Origin: Bacteroidales bacterium
Lineage (GTDB): Bacteria > Bacteroidota > Bacteroidia > Bacteroidales > F082
Assembly: GCA_017439405.1 (NCBI GenBank)
Contig: JAFSJF010000140.1
Span: 1 to 40,621 of the forward strand
Reading direction: 5' to 3'
DNA: 40,621 nucleotides
Shown: piece by piece, positions 20,934 through 28,723 of the stretch
Position numbering within the stretch: position 1 is the first letter of the stretch
Layout: each line of letters begins with the position of its first letter
Position numbers and translations under genes: made by a program
The notes under the pieces: model-generated
The model's input: only the letters and a program-made list of their open reading frames with translations
Database searches by the model: none
Told to the model about the DNA's origin: nothing

Positions 20934-21179
20934 ATGAGTACAATGGAATTGAATGCCGAATTGTTTCATCAATTAAGTTATCTTGCTGATGATGAAACCT
21001 ATATGCAAAAAGTGTTGAAGTTTATTTGTGACCTTGTTGCTCAAAAAGCCAAGTCGGAAAATGACGAGTACATCACAAAAGACGAGCTCCTCGCAGGCAT
21101 TGGGCAGGGTTTGAAAGAGATGAAAGAATGTGATTATGCCAACGCTAAAACCTTGCAGGATGTCATCGACGAGCTTTAA
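20934..21179 (+). CDS. Antitoxin-like protein of second RelE module
   Basis: The 81-residue acidic protein (LNAELFHQLSYLADDETYMQKVLKFI, then YITKDELLAGIGQGLKEMKE) looks like the small helical antitoxins paired with RelE-type toxins in Bacteroidota. A second ATG three codons in is possible. It overlaps the toxin gene by 20 bp in another frame. Confidence 0.72.
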   Translation: MSTMELNAELFHQLSYLADDETYMQKVLKFICDLVAQKAKSENDEYITKDELLAGIGQGLKEMKECDYANAKTLQDVIDEL

Positions 21180-21507
21180 AATCATTCCGCAACCCACTTT
21201 CATTAGAGAAGCGAAGCGCCTTGCCAAGAAGTATAAGTCGTTCAAGAACGACCTGAAGCAACTGAGCGATATGCTGACGGATAACCCTATCGAAGGGGAT
21301 GACCTTGGCGGTGGGCTGCGGAAGGTGCGTATGGCGATAAGCGACAAGAACAAAGGGAAAAGTCATGGCGCAAGGGTCATTACTTACACCTTTCTTGTTG
21401 ACGAGAGCAATGGCGTGGTGAATCTCATTTTCATTTACGACAAGCAAGAAAGAGACTCTATTAGCAAAAAGGAAATCAAGGCTCTGCTGAAAAGTGTGGG
21501 GCTGTAA
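21160..21507 (+). CDS. RelE-like toxin (mRNA interferase family)
   Basis: The 115-residue protein has the RelE-like pattern: IIPQPTFIREAKRLAKKYKSF, a helix KNDLKQLSDML, the glycine turn DDLGGGLRKVRMAI, and basic strands KGKSHGARVITYTFLVDE and LIFIYDKQERDSI. It would cut ribosome-bound mRNA if active. The start at 21160 gives a 20-bp overlap with the antitoxin ORF; upstream in-frame codons are less likely. A 66-bp repeat shared with the DUF4160/DUF2442 pair follows after 71 bp. Confidence 0.75.
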   Translation: MSSTSFKIIPQPTFIREAKRLAKKYKSFKNDLKQLSDMLTDNPIEGDDLGGGLRKVRMAISDKNKGKSHGARVITYTFLVDESNGVVNLIFIYDKQERDSISKKEIKALLKSVGL

Positions 21508-21578
21508 GAAAACCCATTTGAATTATTAAACAAATACAATATCAACAATTTACAAAACTGAATAAATAATAATAGAAG

Positions 21579-21644
21579 AATACAGACACATAATCATTTA
21601 GTATAAGCATTTCAAAAACGAATTCTTGAACATCATTTTCCACA
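21579..21644 (+). repeat. 66-bp direct repeat, copy 2
   Basis: Nearly identical to 19806-19872 and also behind a toxin-antitoxin-like pair. A 6-bp hairpin TGTCTC/GAGACA (21646-21662) follows directly. Confidence 0.85.
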
Positions 21645-21660
21645 CTGTCTCATTTTGAGA

Positions 21661-21722
21661 CAACACAACAAGAAGCCGTTATGAAACGCCATTTTTTTGG
21701 CGTGGAATAACTTGTTGTTGTG
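21661..21722. terminator. Nested stem-loop before XRE gene
   Basis: An inner perfect hairpin ACGCCA-TTTTTT-TGGCGT (21686-21703) sits within an outer imperfect stem of ACAACAAG with CTTGTTGT. It could stop readthrough into the XRE gene or act in its leader. Confidence 0.45.
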
Positions 21723-21773
21723 TGGGCGTGGAAACCCGATGTTCGGCAAGTTAAACAAATTCCACGCTTTTTC

Positions 21774-21983
21774 ATGCACATCGGGCAACATATCAAAGAG
21801 GTAATGCGGCAGCAAGGCGTAACGGCAACACAGTTGGCGAAGGACATTTGCTGCGCCCGTACGCATATCCACAGGATTTTCCTCAAGGACAACATCGACA
21901 TTGCCTTGCTTGAACGCATTTCCACAGCGTTGGATTATGATTTCTTCCGCGACCTTTCCGATGAATTCAAGGGAAAGGTGTGA
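21774..21983 (+). CDS. Small XRE-type DNA-binding protein
   Basis: The 69-residue product (MHIGQHIKEVMRQQGVTATQ, then LAKDICCARTHIHRIF and LLERISTALDYDFFRDLSDEF) is a minimal helix-turn-helix protein of the XRE/Cro type known from Bacteroidota. The ATG at 21774 starts exactly at the HTH domain; in-frame codons upstream fall in the stem-loop. A perfect palindrome lies 8 bp after its stop and a promoter for the next operon 64 bp after it, so it may control that operon. Confidence 0.75.
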   Translation: MHIGQHIKEVMRQQGVTATQLAKDICCARTHIHRIFLKDNIDIALLERISTALDYDFFRDLSDEFKGKV

Positions 21984-21990
21984 CTAATTT

Positions 21991-22003
21991 GGTAACTGTT
22001 ACC
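21991..22003. promoter_or_regulatory. 13-bp perfect palindrome, candidate operator
   Basis: GGTAAC-T-GTTACC lies between the XRE gene and the -7 box at 22047. A second inverted repeat CACTT-CAAA-AAGTG (22012-22025) follows. Both are of a size that a dimeric XRE protein could bind. Confidence 0.45.
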
Positions 22004-22046
22004 GAATAGGTCACTTCAAAAAGTGCCTTGAAACGGTTGAAGAAAG

Positions 22047-22054
22047 TATTTTTG
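22047..22054 (+). promoter_or_regulatory. -7 box for the 22114-25846 operon
   Basis: TATTTTTG matches TAnnTTTG, 59 bp before the ATG at 22114. No other good box was seen within the operon. Confidence 0.5.
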
Positions 22055-22113
22055 CTCCGAATCAATTAACAACTAAAACTACAGGTGACAGGATAAAGAC
22101 TGCCATAAATGAA

Positions 22114-22260
22114 ATGAAAAAAACATTGATGACAATGGCCGTGCTTGTCGTAATGTCGGCTGGCGCAATGATGCTGAGCTCGTTTGCTGCATCCAAGCAA
22201 GATGCAGAAACCGTGAGCTTTCTTTGTAGTAGCATAGGTATTGCAGAACCTCGGATATGA
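22114..22260 (+). CDS. Small signal-peptide-bearing ORF (48 aa)
   Basis: The ORF reads MKKTLMTMAVLVVMSAGAMM and continues LSSFAASKQDAETV, a good Sec signal peptide with cleavage near AASKQ, then only about 20 more residues. It overlaps the nuclease-like ORF by 4 bp (ATGA). It may be a real small exported protein, the truncated start of a larger one, or a translated leader for the operon. Confidence 0.5.
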   Translation: MKKTLMTMAVLVVMSAGAMMLSSFAASKQDAETVSFLCSSIGIAEPRI

Positions 22261-22967
22261 CAAAAGAAATGTTCGCGGTTCTTTTTTTATATCCACTGAA
22301 ACAAAAGATGAGACTAATAGATACGACAAAAAGAGACATTATGCAGTACCTTGCCCAAAGCAACGGAGAACTGCTCTTCAACGAGAGAGACTTGCAGCTG
22401 CATCTCGCACTGCATCTTATTCGCAGTGGTCATTATGACGATGTGGATGTTGAATACTTTGTGCCATATGAAGAGTTGGATAACTATGTTTGGAAGAGCG
22501 AACTGAAATTGGACATAGTGGTTTGCAAAAATGCCGAATACTTACCAGTTGAATTGAAATACAAGACTAAAAAGCATAGCAAACAACTGTTGCGTTTCGA
22601 TGAGAATCTTGAAAAGTCAATCGATGTGCTAAAAAACCAAGGTGCGCAAGACCTTGGAATGTACGATTTTTGGAAAGATGTACGCCGTGTGGAACTTGTA
22701 CGTCGCCGTTTCCATGCTGTTAAGAACGGATTGGCAGTGTTTGTCACCAGTGACAACCAATATCTAAATAAGGGGAAAAGCACGTCCAACAATTATAGAT
22801 TCAGTATGGAAGAAGGTTTGCATGACACAGTAAGACACTGGCAACTACCAAACAGCACCTGTGCCAAGACACACCCTAATTTTGAACTTGACAACAACTA
22901 TATCATCTCTTGGAATAAGAATGTATATGAGAACGTTGAGTTTTATTACTGTATTGTGGAAATTTAA
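22257..22967 (+). CDS. PD-(D/E)XK nuclease-like protein
   Basis: I do not know a named family for this 236-residue protein. The centre holds SELKLDIVVCKNAEYLPVEL followed by KYKTKK: D86, then E99-x-K101, the spacing of a PD-(D/E)XK catalytic core. A helix with FNERDLQLHLALHL precedes it, as in many restriction-type folds. The C-terminal half has a conserved-looking SWNKNVYENVEFYYCIVEI. If active it would cut or bind nucleic acid. The ATG at 22257 overlaps the small ORF; an ATG at 22308 (MRLIDTTKRD) is a plausible shorter start. It is followed by the OmpA-type gene after 17 bp. Confidence 0.65.
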   Translation: MTKEMFAVLFLYPLKQKMRLIDTTKRDIMQYLAQSNGELLFNERDLQLHLALHLIRSGHYDDVDVEYFVPYEELDNYVWKSELKLDIVVCKNAEYLPVELKYKTKKHSKQLLRFDENLEKSIDVLKNQGAQDLGMYDFWKDVRRVELVRRRFHAVKNGLAVFVTSDNQYLNKGKSTSNNYRFSMEEGLHDTVRHWQLPNSTCAKTHPNFELDNNYIISWNKNVYENVEFYYCIVEI

Positions 22968-22984
22968 TCTAAAACATAAAACAA

Positions 22985-23917
22985 ATGGCAAACAAAGTAA
23001 GAGTTTATGGCAAGGCACAGAACCGCACGGCTCTGGGCATAATGCACGCCTACATGGTGATGTATCCACAAGCCACTATGGATGACCTTAAAAAGGCATT
23101 TCCAGATGAATTAAATCCCGACAGCGGCGTTAAGAAAAACTTCGTCAAGGCTGGGGAAAAAGGCACCGATGCCAACTGGGATGGTTTCTTCCAAAAAGAA
23201 GATGAACTACTCACAATGGGCGATGGCTCAAAGGTTGCCGTTGTGAAAATGTGGACTAAACCAAGTTTTGAACGTTTGGTAAGTCATGCATTGCAGTATG
23301 GAATTGAAATTGCCCAATTTGAAGCCGCAGAAAAAGGAATTGGTCAAAAAGGGTCTTTCAGATTGGAGTATCTTAATGGATATGTGCCTCCTAAACGTGA
23401 AGTGAAAAAAAGCATTCCGTGGTGGATGTGGGCAATTATCGGTGTGGTTATTGTGGGGCTTATCATAGCATTGCTTTGCCGCCCGAAGCCTAATGAGAAA
23501 ATAGTTGAAGTGGAAAAGGTTGTCGAAGTCGAAAAAATCATCACAGTCACCGATACTGTTTATTTGCAGCAATTGGAGGCAATTGAGGAGAACTTCAACG
23601 CTGCACAATTCGAGCAAGGCAAGGCTGTATTAAATGAAGATGCTAAGTTTGTACTTCATGACCTCGCCAAATTGATGAACCGCTATCCTGAAATGCGCTT
23701 GCGTATTGAAGGCCATACAAGCGCTGAAGGCAATGCCGATTTGAATCAAAAACTTTCAGAAGCTCGCGCACAGGCTGCTGTTACATTCCTTATTGAGCAT
23801 GGTGGCATTGATGCCAGTCGTCTGGAGGCTGTCGGTTTCGGTAGCAGTAAACCTAAGAACGCCGATAATCCAATGTCACCAGAGAATCGCCGTACAGAGT
23901 TCGAAATCATTCAATAA
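22985..23917 (+). CDS. Inner-membrane protein with cytoplasmic domain and periplasmic OmpA-like domain
   Basis: The 310-residue protein has no signal peptide. Residues 1-140 form a soluble domain (TALGIMHAYMVMYPQATMDD, FERLVSHALQYGIEIAQFE) that I do not recognise. One transmembrane helix follows (WWMWAIIGVVIVGLIIALL, about 146-164), then a Val/Glu-rich linker (VEVEKVVEVEK), and an OmpA-like peptidoglycan-binding domain (RLRIEGHTSAEGNADLN, SEARAQAAVTFLIE, NRRTEFEI). By the positive-inside rule (KREVKK before the helix) the N-domain is cytoplasmic. The layout resembles MotB/ZorB anchors, but no MotA-like partner is present. Confidence 0.8.
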   Translation: MANKVRVYGKAQNRTALGIMHAYMVMYPQATMDDLKKAFPDELNPDSGVKKNFVKAGEKGTDANWDGFFQKEDELLTMGDGSKVAVVKMWTKPSFERLVSHALQYGIEIAQFEAAEKGIGQKGSFRLEYLNGYVPPKREVKKSIPWWMWAIIGVVIVGLIIALLCRPKPNEKIVEVEKVVEVEKIITVTDTVYLQQLEAIEENFNAAQFEQGKAVLNEDAKFVLHDLAKLMNRYPEMRLRIEGHTSAEGNADLNQKLSEARAQAAVTFLIEHGGIDASRLEAVGFGSSKPKNADNPMSPENRRTEFEIIQ

Positions 23918-23938
23918 TCTAAACAAACATACAATCTT

Positions 23939-24361
23939 ATGAAAACAGACCACAGAACATTTGCCGCATTTTTAGCCGCAGCGGTATGGGCGGACGGCGA
24001 ATACGACAAGTCCGAAAAGGCATATCTTTTTGACCTTGCAGAGGACATGGAGTTACCCACAATTCCAGTCGTAGTCGAAAAGGAAATTAAGGCTACGGAA
24101 AACATGACCGAGGAAGAAATCAACGAACATCTGGAAAAAGCCGCCAAACACGTCTTCAAAGGTGAAGAGGAAGGAGTATTGACACTCTGTCTGCACATGT
24201 TGTGCGCCAATGCCGTACTATCGCAAGACGAAGTTGATAACTTTATAGCCTTTGCCGAAATACTTGGCGTGGATGAAGAAAGAGCCAACACAATCCTCGA
24301 CGAGTTTGTAAACGAAGAGGAAGACCTAATTGTCGAAGGTGAAAACACTTCGGCTGAATAA
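23939..24361 (+). CDS. TerB-like protein
   Basis: The 140-residue acidic protein contains FAAFLAAAVWADGEYDKSEK, the ADGE-x(3)-E motif typical of TerB/DjlA-type helical domains. A second half (LHMLCANAVLSQDEVDNFIA) looks like the repeat of the same helix pair. TerB domains bind metal ions in known cases and appear in tellurite resistance and phage-defence contexts. No other Ter genes are here. It lies 21 bp after the OmpA-type gene. Confidence 0.7.
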   Translation: MKTDHRTFAAFLAAAVWADGEYDKSEKAYLFDLAEDMELPTIPVVVEKEIKATENMTEEEINEHLEKAAKHVFKGEEEGVLTLCLHMLCANAVLSQDEVDNFIAFAEILGVDEERANTILDEFVNEEEDLIVEGENTSAE

Positions 24362-24385
24362 TAACCCTCAAAAAAATAAATAGTT

Positions 24386-24652
24386 ATGGCAATACAGAGA
24401 ACAGCCTCTGGCAAGGTCGACAAGAGGACCAAGGAATACAAAGAGATGGTAGAGCGCGCCCGCAAGGCACGTGAAGCACAGAAAAAAGCATCCAAGAAAC
24501 CTACCATTAAAAAGAGTAGTGGAGCCAAACGCAGAGCCGACGGCAAGTTGGACAAACGAACCAAAGAAGGCAAGGAAGCTGCCGCCCGTATGGCAAAAGT
24601 CCGCAAGGCTAAAGGCAGTCTAAAAAACAAAATCAAAAGACTTTTCAAATAA
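24386..24652 (+). CDS. Very basic Lys-rich protein with two internal repeats
   Basis: The 88-residue protein consists of two related halves: ASGKVDKRTKEYKEMVERAR and ADGKLDKRTKEGKEAAARMA, joined by a KKASKKPTIKKSS linker. The strong positive charge suggests binding to DNA, RNA or an acidic partner such as the TerB-like neighbour. It is unlike HU or other known nucleoid proteins that I can recognise. Confidence 0.6.
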   Translation: MAIQRTASGKVDKRTKEYKEMVERARKAREAQKKASKKPTIKKSSGAKRRADGKLDKRTKEGKEAAARMAKVRKAKGSLKNKIKRLFK

Positions 24653-24671
24653 TCATTTAATATCAATTATT

Positions 24672-24872
24672 ATGGCTTACAAAAAATCAGCAATCAGTGG
24701 CGAGTATATGATTGGTGTACTCGAAAGTGGCGGTATAGAAGTTTACCGTGTTTACGACAATGTTAAAGGTGCTCTTCGTGAGGTGGCAGAGAAAGAGGGA
24801 TTCGAGGTTAATCCCGAATGGAATACAAGACAACTCGGAGCAAAACTTATTGATTTCATCAACAATAAATAG
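24672..24872 (+). CDS. Hypothetical small protein (66 aa)
   Basis: Not recognised. The protein reads MAYKKSAISGEYMIGVLESG and later GALREVAEKEGFEVNPEWNT, with a predicted short beta hairpin followed by helices. It is 19 bp after the basic protein gene and 7 bp before the next, so it belongs to the same operon. Confidence 0.55.
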   Translation: MAYKKSAISGEYMIGVLESGGIEVYRVYDNVKGALREVAEKEGFEVNPEWNTRQLGAKLIDFINNK

Positions 24873-24879
24873 CAATACA

Positions 24880-25227
24880 ATGGAAATCAAAGTTGACGGA
24901 CGCCTTTTGGTGTCAACCCTCTGTAAGAGGTTCAAAGATGAGTTCGGTGGTACTCTGCGTGTGTATCAAGGAAAGAAACGCCTTACTGGTGATGAGAAAG
25001 TAAGTGAGGTTGCAACAAAGACAGGCAGTTATGAATGCCGTGGAAGTAAGACGGTTGGCGGTTTCGAGAAGGACATGATGACCAACTTTGGATTGAAAGT
25101 TCAAGTTGCATCTTGCGATGACCATGTATTGGCTCTCGATGAAATGACCCTTGCCAAACTGCCCGACATTCCGAAAATGGCTCGAAAAGCCGATATGGAT
25201 GCCCTTAAATCCAAATATGCCAAATAA
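24880..25227 (+). CDS. Hypothetical protein with a possible internal duplication
   Basis: Not assigned to a family. In the 115-residue protein, VSTLCKRFKDEFGGTLRVY (about 11-29) and VGGFEKDMMTNFGLKVQVA (about 59-77) follow the same pattern of V, helix, F-G, strand. Each is followed by a stretch with D and L residues, suggesting a duplicated helix-strand unit. The ATG at 24880 is 7 bp after the preceding stop. A perfect 14-bp hairpin follows the gene. Confidence 0.55.
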   Translation: MEIKVDGRLLVSTLCKRFKDEFGGTLRVYQGKKRLTGDEKVSEVATKTGSYECRGSKTVGGFEKDMMTNFGLKVQVASCDDHVLALDEMTLAKLPDIPKMARKADMDALKSKYAK

Positions 25228-25240
25228 AACGGTATAAACC

Positions 25241-25272
25241 AATCTGGTGGCAGGTCTCCCTGCCACCAGATT
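25241..25272. terminator. Perfect 14-bp hairpin inside the operon
   Basis: 25241-25254 (AATCTGGTGGCAGG) pairs without mismatch with 25259-25272 around a TCTC loop. There is no T-run, so it may be an attenuator, an RNA-processing site or a partial terminator that lowers expression of the last two genes. Confidence 0.6.
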
Positions 25273-25288
25273 CCAATTAAACATTATT

Positions 25289-25549
25289 ATGTCTGTAGAA
25301 TATTACCGCAAACGTCTTATTGACTTACGTTCTCAAGTAACCAAGGAACGAGAAGCAAAAAAGAAGGACAATGAGCGATATGCTGCATATATAAAAAGTG
25401 CCAGTTCTCCAAGCAGTAAAGCCAGTTACCGCAAACAAAAGATTGACCATGCTGCCAGTCACGACCGCAATATCGAGAACCTTAAACGCCAAATAGAGAG
25501 CGCAAAGGAAAGTCTCAAACGAGAACGTGAAAGAGCAAAGAGAAAGTAG
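25289..25549 (+). CDS. Basic coiled-coil protein (86 aa)
   Basis: Starts MSVEYYRKRLIDLRSQVTKE. Two heptad-patterned, highly charged helices (about 3-30 and 55-85, ENLKRQIESAKESLKRERER) flank a Ser-rich link (SASSPSSKAS). No family recognised. The next gene begins 3 bp after its stop. Confidence 0.55.
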   Translation: MSVEYYRKRLIDLRSQVTKEREAKKKDNERYAAYIKSASSPSSKASYRKQKIDHAASHDRNIENLKRQIESAKESLKRERERAKRK

Positions 25550-25552
25550 TAT

Positions 25553-25846
25553 ATGGCTCTATTTCTTTGGATATTCCAATTCATTAGTCCAATAGCAATA
25601 ATACTTGGTGGACTATATCTACTGGAAGCCCCCTCTCCCGCATCACTTATCGTGGGTGCGTTGAGCGCAATCCTCGGTCTTGTGGTCGGCATTGTCGGTT
25701 GGGCAGACACGGTGCCGCCTCGTTGGTTTTGGATTAAGAGTAGCATGAATTTGGCTGGGAGCCGTTTTATGACTGCCATAGGCTATGCCATCCAATTCTT
25801 TTTCCTTGCCCTCGCCATCTTTGGCATTGCGGAATATTGGGGATAA
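25553..25846 (+). CDS. Small membrane protein (97 aa, three helices)
   Basis: Three hydrophobic segments are clear, at about residues 4-24, 29-50 and 70-94 (FFFLALAIFGIAEYW), with a short loop ADTVPPRWFWIKS between the second and third. It is the last gene of the run and may hold the small coiled-coil protein at the membrane. Function unknown. Confidence 0.55.
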   Translation: MALFLWIFQFISPIAIILGGLYLLEAPSPASLIVGALSAILGLVVGIVGWADTVPPRWFWIKSSMNLAGSRFMTAIGYAIQFFFLALAIFGIAEYWG

Positions 25847-25937
25847 CATCCGAATAAAATCACCATATATTTCCCCATAACCCATTTTTTATCGAGTTAC
25901 GGCGGACTATACGGTAATTCTGTCTAAAAAGTCACAT

Positions 25938-25964
25938 AAAACATGCAAAACTATCGTATGTTTT
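25938..25964. terminator. Hairpin beside orphan purC tail
   Basis: AAAACATGC pairs with GTATGTTTT. It is a diverged version of the hairpin at 28756-28784 and, like it, directly follows a purC stop codon on the minus strand. Confidence 0.55.
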
Positions 25965-26033
25965 TCATAGCCTCAAATAGTTCAGCACATTATTATCAAT
26001 CTGTTTGACAAGGTTCTCCGTATCGAAGGCCTT
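25965..26033 (-). pseudogene. Orphan 3' tail of a purC gene
   Basis: Reading leftward the frame is KAFDTENLVKQIDNNVLNYL and ends RL then TGA. The intact purC ends [20 protein letters not shown] then NL. I count about 49 of 69 matching bases. Just upstream, the frame runs into stops at the end of the ATPase gene at 26037, so only 22 codons survive. Confidence 0.8.
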
Positions 26034-26036
26034 TTA

Positions 26037-27158
26037 CTATAAAAGTATCGTAAAGAAATTATCTGGATTAACAGTCGTAATTTCGGTGTTGGGATAGGCA
26101 TTCAAGAAAGTTTGGCTTATTTTGGCCTTCTTTTTCGGATTCCACTTGAACTCGTATGCTGTGAAACGTCCATCGGCTTCCTCGATGTAGTCGATTTCTT
26201 GTTGTTGTGTGGTTCTCCAAAAATAACGGTTGACAAATTGGCGGTCGTAAGACCGTTTCTTGACCAACTCGCTAATCATCCAGTTTTCCCACAAAGCCCC
26301 AATGTCGTCACGAAGGGCAAGGTCGTTATAATTGCTGATGAGGGCGTTGCGGATACCATTGTCGTAGAAGTAGATTTTACGGGCCGTCTTTAATTCATTG
26401 CGGAGATTACGGCTTAATGAGCCAAGCCTGAAAATGACCTGGGCTTGTTCCAATAAGACGATGTATTTCTCCACCGTGTTTTTGTCCAAGCCGACTTGTT
26501 GTCCCAACTCGTTCAGCGACACTTCGCTTCCCACTTGAAAAGCCAACGACTGAAGCAATTTGACCAATTTATCGGATTTCTTGACGCGCTCCCATTCGAG
26601 GACATCCTTGTATAAGTAACTGTCAGTGACTTGCTTAAGAACTTCTTTTTCGTCGCCAGGGTGCATGACGACATCTGGGTAGTAACCATAGACCAAGCGA
26701 AGCGGCAAGTGCTTGATTTCCTCAAAAGGATTGGTGTGTTCGGCCATTTCGGCGAATGAGAGCGGAAACAGGGTATATTCCCATTTTCGGCCCGTCAAAG
26801 GCTCGTTGACACGATTGGCAAGTTCGAACGATGAACTTCCGGTAAGTATGAGTTGAACCTCTGGCAGATGGTCGGTTATCAGCTTCATTTTCAATCCAAT
26901 GTTCTCTATTCGTTGGGCTTCATCCACGACCATGATTTTTTTGGATCCTATCAGACTTCGGAATTTCTCCACCGACACTTCCTGCAACAAAGTCCTTGTG
27001 GAGAGTTCATCTCCATTGAGCCATAGAATATCATTTCTTCCATTCGTCAGTTCTTGCAGCAATGTGGTTTTTCCCACTTGTCGCGCACCTATAAGCACGA
27101 TGGCTTTCCCATTGAAAAAACGGTTTTCGATAACCTTGCGTAGTTTGCGTTCTATCAT
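26037..27158 (-). CDS. AAA ATPase with DUF4143 (nuclease-like C-terminus), copy 1
   Basis: The 373-residue protein has Walker A (LIGARQVGKTTLL), Walker B (KIMVVDEAQRI), an LTGSSSFEL sensor motif, a winged-helix middle (SLNELGQQVGLDKNTVEKYI) and a C-terminal PD-(D/E)XK-like core (QEIDYIEEADG then AYEFKW). Such genes are abundant in Bacteroidota and their role is unsettled. The stop codon is followed after 3 bp by the orphan purC tail. It is divergent from the ATPase at 27422. Confidence 0.87.
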   Translation of the reverse strand: MIERKLRKVIENRFFNGKAIVLIGARQVGKTTLLQELTNGRNDILWLNGDELSTRTLLQEVSVEKFRSLIGSKKIMVVDEAQRIENIGLKMKLITDHLPEVQLILTGSSSFELANRVNEPLTGRKWEYTLFPLSFAEMAEHTNPFEEIKHLPLRLVYGYYPDVVMHPGDEKEVLKQVTDSYLYKDVLEWERVKKSDKLVKLLQSLAFQVGSEVSLNELGQQVGLDKNTVEKYIVLLEQAQVIFRLGSLSRNLRNELKTARKIYFYDNGIRNALISNYNDLALRDDIGALWENWMISELVKKRSYDRQFVNRYFWRTTQQQEIDYIEEADGRFTAYEFKWNPKKKAKISQTFLNAYPNTEITTVNPDNFFTILL

Positions 27159-27421: not shown

Positions 27422-28723
27422 ATGCTGAAAAGAAAGATTACAGAACGGCTTTTGGAGTGGAAAAACACCAAGGACAAGGAATGTTTGCTCGTCAAAGGGA
27501 CGCGGCAAATCGGGAAAACCTTTATCATTGAGGACTTTGCGCGAAGGCATTATCCGCATTTCGTGGAAATCAATTTCGAGCAACATCCCGAAATGAGGGC
27601 CATTTTTGATGGTAGTCTTTCCGTCCCCGAACTAATCCAAAGAATCACCTTGTTTATGCCTGATGCCGAGTTTGTGTCGCACGAGACTTTGCTTTTCCTT
27701 GACGAGATACAATCCTGTCCCCAAGCACGTACTTCGTTGAAATTCTGGGCGATAGATAACCAATATGATGTGATTGCTACGGGGTCGCTTTTGGGTATTA
27801 ATTATAAAGAGGTGTCGTCTTACCCCGTTGGTTATGAGCGGCAGATGGATATGTTTTCCCTAGATTTTGAGGAGTTTTTGTGGGCATTGGGTGTTAAGGA
27901 GAGTCTGATAGAAGGTTTGCGTGGGCATTTCACTTCGGGTGAAGCCGTTGATTGGGTGATTCACGAAAAGATGATGTCGTATCTGCGTGAGTATATGACA
28001 GTTGGGGGGATGCCAGCGGTGGTCAACAAGTTTATTGAGACGCATAATTTCAACCTCGTCCACGCTGAACAAAGCAAGATTTTGGCGGATTATTTGAATG
28101 ACATTGCCAAATACGCCCCGACTGCCGACAAGCCCAAGGCGCGCAACTGCTACCTTTCCATTCCTTCACAATTGGCCAAGGAGAACACGAAGTTCCAGTA
28201 TTCAGTGGTGGAGAAGAAAGGCACGGCGCGGAAATTCGCCAACAGCCTCGACTGGCTGCGCGATGCCAACCTGATAGCCTTTTGCCACAATGTTTCGACG
28301 GTTGAGTTTCCTTTGGCGGCTTACGCCAAAGAAGACCAGTTCAGGATTTATGTCACTGATATTGGCTTGTTGGTCGCCATGTATGGTTTCGAGATGAAAC
28401 GCGCTGTCGTTGACGACACGCTCACCAGTTATGCCAAAGGCGGGATTTATGAGAACTTGATGGCTGATTTTCTGCTGAAAAAGGGCCTTCCGCTATATTA
28501 TTATTGCAAGGACAACAACTCGGTGGAGGTCGAGTTCCTCATCGAGCGCAATGCGAAACCCGTGCCCATCGAAGTGAAAGCCAAACGCGGGACAACCGCC
28601 TCGTTGGACACCATTTTGAACAAACCCAACATCGAAATCGGCTACAAATTCGGTGCAGGCAATGTGGGCGTTGAGGGCAAAAAAACAACATTGCCACTGT
28701 TCATGGCAATGTTTGTTTCGTGA
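27422..28723 (+). CDS. AAA ATPase with DUF4143 (nuclease-like C-terminus), copy 2
   Basis: The 433-residue protein has Walker A (VKGTRQIGKTFII), Walker B (LLFLDEIQSC), an ATGSLLGINY sensor motif, a DUF4143 region (GTARKFANSLDWLRDANLI, FRIYVTDIGLLVAMYG) and a PD-(D/E)XK-like end (NSVEVEFLIE then PVPIEVKAKRG). It is only distantly related to copy 1. The whole gene with its promoter lies between two copies of a 108-bp repeat that starts inside its own final codons. It converges on purC. Confidence 0.88.
   Translation: MLKRKITERLLEWKNTKDKECLLVKGTRQIGKTFIIEDFARRHYPHFVEINFEQHPEMRAIFDGSLSVPELIQRITLFMPDAEFVSHETLLFLDEIQSCPQARTSLKFWAIDNQYDVIATGSLLGINYKEVSSYPVGYERQMDMFSLDFEEFLWALGVKESLIEGLRGHFTSGEAVDWVIHEKMMSYLREYMTVGGMPAVVNKFIETHNFNLVHAEQSKILADYLNDIAKYAPTADKPKARNCYLSIPSQLAKENTKFQYSVVEKKGTARKFANSLDWLRDANLIAFCHNVSTVEFPLAAYAKEDQFRIYVTDIGLLVAMYGFEMKRAVVDDTLTSYAKGGIYENLMADFLLKKGLPLYYYCKDNNSVEVEFLIERNAKPVPIEVKAKRGTTASLDTILNKPNIEIGYKFGAGNVGVEGKKTTLPLFMAMFVS

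What the first reader, a model, noticed from the sequence alone, without database searches (positions are those of the whole stretch)
22047..25846. Operon of nuclease-like, peptidoglycan-anchored and TerB-like proteins: candidate undescribed system
Seen: a single promoter-like box, then a 48-codon leader ORF and eight genes on one strand with gaps mostly of 3-24 bp. They encode a PD-(D/E)XK-like protein, a single-pass membrane protein with a cytoplasmic domain and a periplasmic OmpA-like domain, a TerB-like protein, a Lys-rich repeat protein, two unknown small proteins, a basic coiled coil and a three-helix membrane protein. Known: a nuclease plus a peptidoglycan anchor occurs in Zorya-type defence, and TerB domains occur in stress and defence clusters. 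Inferred: this may be a membrane-tethered nucleic-acid-sensing or phage-defence device. It sits in an accessory zone next to toxin-antitoxin genes. No named system that I know has this gene set.
Basis: partly seen in the sequence, partly recalled or inferred. Interest (0 to 1): 0.82.

Follow-up and report, generated by a model that had tools for sequence, protein, structure and literature searches.

The report
Shuffled peptidoglycan-anchored bacterial gene island
Eight adjacent genes in a gut-type bacterium turn out to be one copy of an unnamed gene set that related bacteria carry in different gene orders and with different nucleases or ion channels, apparently preceded by a structured switch-like RNA; it may be a defence or envelope-alarm device, but no function has been tested.

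Summary
The operon is real and not a chance cluster. Its families recur in 24 contigs found with OmpA as bait and 5 found with other baits. All labelled core genes share one strand (257 of 257), in 28 orders over 30 loci. The set is a hub (conserved cytoplasmic domain, membrane helix, OmpA domain), small partners (TerB/Lys-rich pair, s66, s115, basic coiled coil) and exchangeable parts: here a PD-(D/E)XK-like protein and a 3-helix membrane protein, elsewhere ion channels, KAP NTPases or GIY-YIG nucleases. Other copies lie beside a kinase/HTH6 pair; this one lies behind a small Xre gene. It is not Zorya: no ZorA-like gene, no Asp in the OmpA membrane helix. The "48-codon leader ORF" is better read as a copy of a ~150-nt structured leader RNA with an overlapping terminator: strong covariation, no Rfam 15 match where scanned, at least 24 matches in this genome, found in 67 of 198 Bacteroidales genomes. 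Best guess, 0.45: an envelope-tethered, phage-defence-like device. Defence is unproven: no clear defence-island context, and three genomes show only a lone OmpA-type gene.

The parts
21625..21772 (+). structured leader RNA copy 1 (closing stems, AA/CC internal loop, overlapping terminator), upstream of the Xre gene
   Evidence: CM R1 full-length match, 21.2 bits, E 0.0045 for the window alone, no non-standard pair marked; homologous DNA upstream of Xre in L014 and L018. No TAnnTTTG box within 250 nt upstream
21774..21983 (+). small Xre-type HTH regulator
   Evidence: Pfam HTH_3 E 4.5e-6; relative at the same place in L014, L016, L017, L018 (model of one sequence)
22047..22054 (+). promoter-like box TATTTTTG
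   Evidence: 34 of 40 RNA copies have TAnnTTTG within 250 nt upstream, 4.3 expected after shuffling
22103..22285 (+). structured leader RNA copy 2; 3' terminator half intact, 5' closing stems poorly paired; covers the supposed leader ORF 22114-22260
   Evidence: CM R1 29.7 bits, E 6.7e-5 for the window alone; homologous DNA in L012 and L022 at the same place
22308..22967 (+). nuc: PD-(D/E)XK-like protein, 219 aa
   Evidence: D86/E99/K101 (numbered from 22257) invariant in 13 of 13; PDDEXK_4 weak
22985..23917 (+). ompA: cytoplasmic domain (about 1-135), TM helix 147-165, linker, OmpA domain
   Evidence: Pfam OmpA 1.6e-18; hydropathy; AlphaFold2 mean pLDDT 78.5, pTM 0.44; 22-sequence alignment
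23939..24361 (+). terB: acidic TerB-like protein (pI 4.2)
   Evidence: Pfam TerB 4.8e-5, just below cut-off; lys is present in 20 of 20 loci that have terB
24386..24652 (+). lys: Lys-rich protein, two DKRTKE repeats (pI 11.2)
24672..24872 (+). s66: small domain, elsewhere tandem or fused to OmpA, LRR and KAP proteins
24880..25227 (+). s115: duplicated beta-alpha-beta-(beta)-alpha protein
   Evidence: AlphaFold2 mean pLDDT 86.5, pTM 0.76; paralogues in the islands
25289..25549 (+). cc: basic, coiled-coil-like protein
   Evidence: present in 26 of 30 loci
25553..25846 (+). mem: three-helix membrane protein
   Evidence: hydropathy; present in 12 of 30 loci

Best explanation
Shown: a recurrent, co-directional, order-shuffled gene set around a protein that joins a very conserved cytoplasmic domain to a membrane helix and an OmpA (peptidoglycan-binding type) domain, with variable nuclease-, channel- or membrane-type partners, and with a covarying RNA leader that carries an overlapping terminator in front of many copies. 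Inferred: the OmpA protein tethers the complex to the cell wall and reports damage or strain of the envelope, as during phage entry. The small proteins (terB+lys, s66, s115, cc) act as adaptors that couple the hub to effectors: here the PD-(D/E)XK protein, cutting nucleic acid, and the three-helix protein, perturbing the membrane; elsewhere ion channels or GIY-YIG nucleases. Expression would be held low by transcription attenuation in the leader RNA and by Xre, or in other genomes by the kinase/HTH6 pair. This is a defence-type device that works like Zorya in logic but is not Zorya.
For: Co-occurrence from three baits. OmpA: 24 of 33 loci hold other genes of the set; the other 9 (L033-L041) match only the OmpA domain. 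TerB: 5 of 295 genomes, all 5 loci with the OmpA N-domain close by. s115: 2 of 395 genomes, both with it close by. Same strand 257 of 257; 28 orders in 30 loci; gene distances correlate (r 0.44-0.92). Exchangeable parts: PDDEXK_4 2.3e-14, Ion_trans 4.2e-23 and 9.5e-35, KAP 5e-34, GIY-YIG 1.4e-24. Window against L022: 89.7% identical DNA from the ompA start codon to 13 bp past mem, yet the gene in front is a different one (no Pfam match; D...ExK motif by eye). Fusions of s66 to OmpA, LRR and KAP proteins. Patchy: N-domain in 10 of 295 sampled Bacteroidales genomes and in none of the 3 other sampled genomes of the genus. Purifying selection in the seven comparable genes, dN/dS 0-0.095. The OmpA domain has an invariant H-x-S, as the residue numbers H141/S143 imply for ZorB II.
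Against: No functional test. PADLOC gives only partial matches to the operon (ZorB models on the OmpA domain, PDC-S48 on TerB, ZorA2 at E 0.033 on the coiled coil). The surroundings show no clear defence island: of 80 proteins scanned (75 flank or unlabelled in-island, 5 labelled in-island), the top matches are PDC-S01 (5), mad8 (3), and UvrD-type GajB, RTasHel, DEDDh and PDC-M57A (2 each); only 25 of 167 matching families are shown and not which member matched. No match in plasmid, phage or viral collections with the queries used. Three genomes show only a lone OmpA-type gene in the stretch fetched (L067-L069), which suits an envelope role. The leader RNA also precedes secreted and lipoprotein-like genes, so it is not defence-specific.
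Confidence: 0.45

Rival explanations
1. Envelope-stress or turgor-homeostasis apparatus: the OmpA-anchored complex senses wall or membrane strain, and the channels, KAP and TerB-type membrane proteins adjust the membrane; the nuclease-like protein is structural or regulatory.
For: Ion channels (16 and 4 of 30 loci; Pfam), a TerB protein with a sub-cut-off EcsC match and lipoprotein-like genes recur; lone OmpA-type genes in three genomes; purifying selection; surroundings look like ordinary chromosomal genes by eye.
Against: Patchy presence (10 of 295), order shuffling and exchange of nuclease types are unusual for homeostasis genes.
Confidence: 0.3
2. Toxin or antagonism locus, or part of a surface apparatus, whose nuclease and membrane proteins act on other cells or on the host cell under contact.
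For: Membrane and nuclease-like products, a BspA-type LRR fusion, shuffled modules.
Against: The nuclease-like protein has no hydrophobic start or membrane segment; apart from the OmpA domain, whose models include some secretion-system OmpA proteins, none of the eight proteins matched a secretion family; I identified no immunity-like partner, but made no dedicated search for one.
Confidence: 0.1
3. Unrelated accessory genes that merely collect in the same permissive places, each with its own role.
For: Order is not conserved, and members come and go between loci.
Against: One strand in 257 of 257, convergence of three baits, correlated gene distances, domain fusions between members.
Confidence: 0.07

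Closest known systems
Zorya phage defence (ZorAB + nuclease modules; passages of PMC11890865 read)
   Same: Inner-membrane protein with a peptidoglycan-binding type domain plus a nuclease-type partner; H-x-S as implied by ZorB II residue numbers; PADLOC ZorB models match the OmpA part (best 3.3e-6).
   Different: No MotA/ZorA-type gene among the eight; no Asp in the OmpA membrane helix (ZorB D24 is crucial); a conserved cytoplasmic N-domain is added; different partners and gene shuffling.
iSTAND and related diversifying conflict systems (Kaur et al. 2020, PMC7159879; passages read)
   Same: Modular swapping of effectors, adaptor-type small domains, OmpA effector domains typically preceded by a membrane segment.
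   Different: No vWA, MoxR or STAND-type match among the eight proteins; the hub here is the OmpA protein itself.
TerB/Ter stress clusters (recalled)
   Same: A TerB-like protein and, in two loci, a TerB protein with a sub-cut-off EcsC match.
   Different: No TerC/TerD-type match among the eight; the Lys-rich partner is a constant companion here (20 of 20).
FopS sRNA family of Bacteroides (PMC11697453; passages read)
   Same: Multicopy RNA of Bacteroidota with a terminator.
   Different: FopS is described as a single-stranded 5' stretch plus terminator hairpin; the RNA here has a long closing hairpin overlapping the terminator and mostly stands in front of genes.

Membership tests
Zorya | ZorA (MotA/ExbB-type) motor protein encoded beside ZorB | tested here: not met
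   Pfam, PADLOC, NCBIfam and PHROGs scans of the eight proteins: only a ZorA2 match at E 0.033 to the coiled coil
Zorya | Asp in the ZorB membrane helix (D24) | tested here: not met
   window helix 147-165 has no Asp (sequence, helix); importance of D24 read in PMC11890865
Zorya | peptidoglycan-binding type periplasmic domain | tested here: met
   Pfam OmpA 1.6e-18; H244, S246, R261, R302 and R303 invariant in 22 of 22; binding itself not tested
PD-(D/E)XK nuclease superfamily (nuc) | conserved D-x(n)-(E/D)-x-K motif | tested here: met
   D86, E99, K101 invariant in 13 of 13
PD-(D/E)XK nuclease superfamily (nuc) | significant profile or fold match | tested here: inconclusive
   PDDEXK_4 in 3 of 13 members, best 5.9e-4, below cut-off for the window protein; hhalign to a PDDEXK_4 island protein aligns 30 columns over the motif, probability 0.6%; PDB profile search: best 0.047 to T4 lysozyme, Cas4 exonuclease 0.66; no fold predicted for nuc
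TerB family | Pfam TerB at the gathering score | tested here: inconclusive
   24.1 against 24.4 bits, E 4.8e-5
ubiquitin-like fold (s115; my own early idea) | beta-beta-alpha-beta-beta-alpha-beta order (recalled) | tested here: not met
   predicted order is a duplicated beta-alpha-beta-(beta)-alpha; no structural search was possible
known RNA families (Rfam 15) | covariance-model match | tested here: not met
   none for the leader RNA in window 21000-26600 up to E 1 or in 9 loci at gathering scores

The most novel reading that the evidence does not exclude
Bacteroidales carry an undescribed, adaptor-based immune module: a peptidoglycan-anchored hub with shuffled small adaptor proteins and interchangeable nuclease, channel or NTPase effectors.
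Probability: 0.3. Interest if true: 0.9.

Novelty: categorically new. Interest (0 to 1): 0.72.

Why it matters
If it is a defence or envelope-alarm device, it would be a new solution to sensing attack at the cell wall in an order common in gut and rumen samples, built from parts that evolution reshuffles freely, and it would offer several new small adaptor domains to study. Separately, the leader RNA looks like a widespread switch (67 of 198 sampled Bacteroidales genomes; at least 24 matches in this genome) with no match in the RNA-family library where I scanned; finding what it responds to would open the control of many accessory genes at once.

Tried and rejected
Ubiquitin-like reading of s115: dropped after the fold prediction. 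Zorya membership: dropped (see test). The leader ORF as a gene: dropped in favour of the RNA; L012 and L022 have the RNA, and I saw no such ORF there (by eye). Plasmid, phage and viral carriage: plasmids and phages searched with one s115 relative (L010) and with the window OmpA N-domain, viral contigs with alignment A9; no relative. Defence-island context: 80 proteins scanned, 75 of the 140 candidate flank or unlabelled in-island ORFs plus 5 labelled in-island ones; nothing clear. Homology of nuc to the PDDEXK_4 protein of other islands: only the motif aligns. Similarity of the KAP protein's C-terminus to the OmpA N-domain: an idea from reading the sequences, not tested and not used. An alignment for a fused protein (A6) was misaligned and not used. 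A13 (13 rows) was replaced by A14 (9 rows): three divergent copies (window 21625, L014, L018) and the near-duplicate L017 were left out before modelling; L032 had been left out of A13. Literature: the 8 paper searches that ran showed no title or abstract describing this gene set or this RNA. PMC8040213 reports thousands of candidate RNAs, 15 of them before HTH_XRE genes, whose tables I could not read, so this RNA may be among them. I saw search listings for all papers, and passages only of PMC11890865, PMC8040213, PMC7159879, PMC11697453 and PMC7366714.
Full report
OBSERVATION. The eight genes are present as described, on the + strand, 22308-25846, with gaps of 17, 21, 24, 19, 7, 61 and 3 bp. 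Library scans name only part of them: OmpA (1.6e-18), TerB (4.8e-5, marginal), PDDEXK_4 (0.027, weak). For lys, s66, s115, cc and mem nothing reached 1e-3 in Pfam, NCBIfam, PHROGs or PADLOC. The motif residues D86, E99 and K101 of nuc are invariant in all 13 aligned relatives.

RECURRENCE. One scan of the species-genome collection with OmpA gave 33 loci. In 24 (L009-L032) other operon genes lie alongside. The other 9 (L033-L041) match only the OmpA domain and were dropped. Other baits agree: TerB in 5 of 295 sampled genomes of the order, all 5 loci with the OmpA N-domain; s115 in 2 of 395 sampled genomes of the phylum, both with it; s66 in 1 of 395, the window's own. In the set of 30 loci (window, L009-L032, L045-L049), OmpA-N is in 29, the s115-type model in 27, cc in 26, lys in 21, terB in 20, s66 in 19, nuc in 15, mem in 12. 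TerB never occurs without lys (20 of 20). OmpA-N is near-universal by construction in the baited loci, and some loci are cut by contig ends.

ORDER AND FUSIONS. All 257 labelled core genes share OmpA's strand, and there are 28 different orders in 30 loci; cut loci inflate that number. Pairwise gene distances correlate (r 0.44 to 0.92; at most 5 of 500 permutations as high), so the genes largely travel together. S66 occurs alone, in tandem, and fused to the OmpA protein (L023, L024, L028), to a protein with BspA-type LRRs, a DUF533-type stretch and an s115-type part (L012; LRR_5 2.5e-58, DUF533 0.0012), and to a KAP-type protein (L032). Exchangeable neighbours include ion channels (Ion_trans 4.2e-23 and 9.5e-35), a KAP NTPase (5e-34), PDDEXK_4 (2.3e-14), GIY-YIG (1.4e-24 and 2.5e-15) and a TerB protein (7.4e-8) with a sub-cut-off EcsC match. 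The nearest relative, L022, is 89.7% identical from the ompA start codon to 13 bp past mem and then stops matching. The gene in front of ompA there is a different one, with no Pfam match; it shows a D...ExK motif by eye. Identity falls to 67-74% in the membrane-linker part of ompA, and dS varies from 0.13 to 0.77 between the seven comparable genes, which suggests a mosaic. Their dN/dS is 0 to 0.095.

DISTRIBUTION AND COUNTER-EVIDENCE. The OmpA N-domain is in 10 of 295 sampled Bacteroidales genomes, in 9 genera, and in none of the 3 other sampled genomes of the window's genus. Of the 10, six have the island, three show only a lone OmpA-type gene in the 12-19 kb fetched (L067-L069), and one has an N-domain protein beside HTH6 (L070). 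No relative was found in plasmid, phage or viral collections with the queries used. A PADLOC scan of 80 proteins (75 of 140 candidate flank or unlabelled in-island ORFs, and 5 labelled in-island ones) gave mostly ATPase- and helicase-type matches: PDC-S01 in 5, mad8 in 3, GajB models in 2 each (25 of 167 families shown). These points weigh against a simple defence-island story.

REGULATION. Fifteen of 30 loci have a protein kinase (Pkinase 1.7e-28 for one member) and fifteen an HTH6 protein (an uncharacterised family; the name is mine), both in 14; five, including the window, have the small Xre gene; none has both Xre and kinase (the Xre model rests on one sequence). A structured RNA precedes many islands. 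On the 9 sequences from which I read the structure (A14), 17 of 22 pairs change on both sides and 92.3% of cells pair, against 33.2-45.2% when slid. On 37 matches fitted to the model (A15), 93.8% pair against 33.5-41.3% slid and 54.1% shuffled, and 224 cells are changed on both sides against 60.7 shuffled; but pairs with a double change (14 of 15) exceed shuffles only modestly (6 of 500 as high), pair-type diversity does not exceed them (403 of 500 as high), and one pair fails in 14 of 37 rows. The 23 rows from this genome, none used for the model, give 93.8% against 31.9-42.6% slid and 53% shuffled. The terminator's 5' arm lies inside the hairpin: over the 28 rows not used for the model, pairing of hairpin interior with its own tail averages -25.8 against -18.2 kcal/mol with other copies' interiors, but the own one is the single best in only 10 of 28 (13 of 37 overall), so the switch is an inference. 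34 of 40 copies have a TAnnTTTG box within 250 nt upstream, 4.3 expected.

RNA DISTRIBUTION. Matches at E up to 0.005 lie in 17 of the 30 island loci. All five Xre loci have a copy just upstream of Xre, but L014 (E 0.98) and the window (0.067) are weak by the model. This genome has 24 matches at E up to 1, 22 below 6e-4; 150 of 257 candidates were scored, and the window's 21625 copy is not among them. I fetched all 24 but one, C89 (one is the window's own). 67 of 198 sampled genomes of the order have one at 1e-4 (stricter filters, at most 15 candidates scored per genome). Rfam 15 gave no match to it (window 21000-26600 up to E 1; nine loci at gathering). Downstream operons in this genome include a type III restriction pair, a GmrSD-type endonuclease and an Xre gene (Pfam), many secreted or lipoprotein-like ORFs, and a radical-SAM/JAB/E2-like operon beside a kinase/HTH6 pair (by eye); a few copies have no clear sense ORF after them. 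So the RNA is a general accessory-gene leader, not private to this island. The window has two copies: one well paired before Xre (21625-21772), and one before nuc (22103-22285) whose terminator half is intact but whose closing stems are poorly paired; a different 5' hairpin may replace them.

STRUCTURE. OmpA: AlphaFold2 mean pLDDT 78.5, pTM 0.44; in the N-domain the ten-residue means run from 71 to 91 except 52 at 111-120. S115: mean pLDDT 86.5, a duplicated beta-alpha-beta-(beta)-alpha unit. Comparison with solved folds was not possible, and sequence searches of the PDB gave no convincing hits for nuc, s115, s66 or the N-domain (best E 0.047, none, 0.042 and 0.69).

MECHANISM AND NOVELTY. My commitment is a wall-tethered hub with adaptors and swappable effectors, under attenuator control, acting as a conflict device (0.45). 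Shown: the parts, their linkage, exchange and RNA covariation. Inferred: wall sensing, adaptor function, nuclease activity, membrane effect, attenuation, phage as the trigger. Zorya is the nearest in logic, but two of its defining features were tested and not met. I call the set categorically new because the whole set matched no named system in the libraries and papers searched, although several single parts (OmpA, TerB, KAP, ion channel, PD-(D/E)XK) belong to known families.

Noticed in passing
24 matches in the window's genome, e.g. G000:C19:15154-15313, C121:147-286, C144:7597-7759: Multicopy structured leader RNA with overlapping terminator, no Rfam 15 match in the stretches scanned, mostly before accessory genes.
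   Followed up: partly
G000 contigs C150, C121, C116, C104, C94, C153: Six of the 24 RNA matches lie within 500 nt of a contig end (coordinates), so repeats may flank them.
   Followed up: no
L054:2399-9423: A kinase/HTH6 pair and an RNA copy beside an operon with a radical-SAM/SPASM-like, a JAB-like and an E2-like protein (names by eye).
   Followed up: no
window 20934-21507: RelE-type gene and a likely antitoxin gene just upstream (RelE 2.6e-7); similar pairs lie upstream of several RNA copies (by eye).
   Followed up: partly
L067:9059-10159, L068:9105-10265, L069:8622-9641: Lone OmpA-type genes with the same N-domain and no other island family in the stretch fetched.
   Followed up: partly
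window 26037-27158 and 27422-28723: Two ATPase genes next to the operon; the first is AAA_14/DUF4143, the second looks similar by eye.
   Followed up: partly
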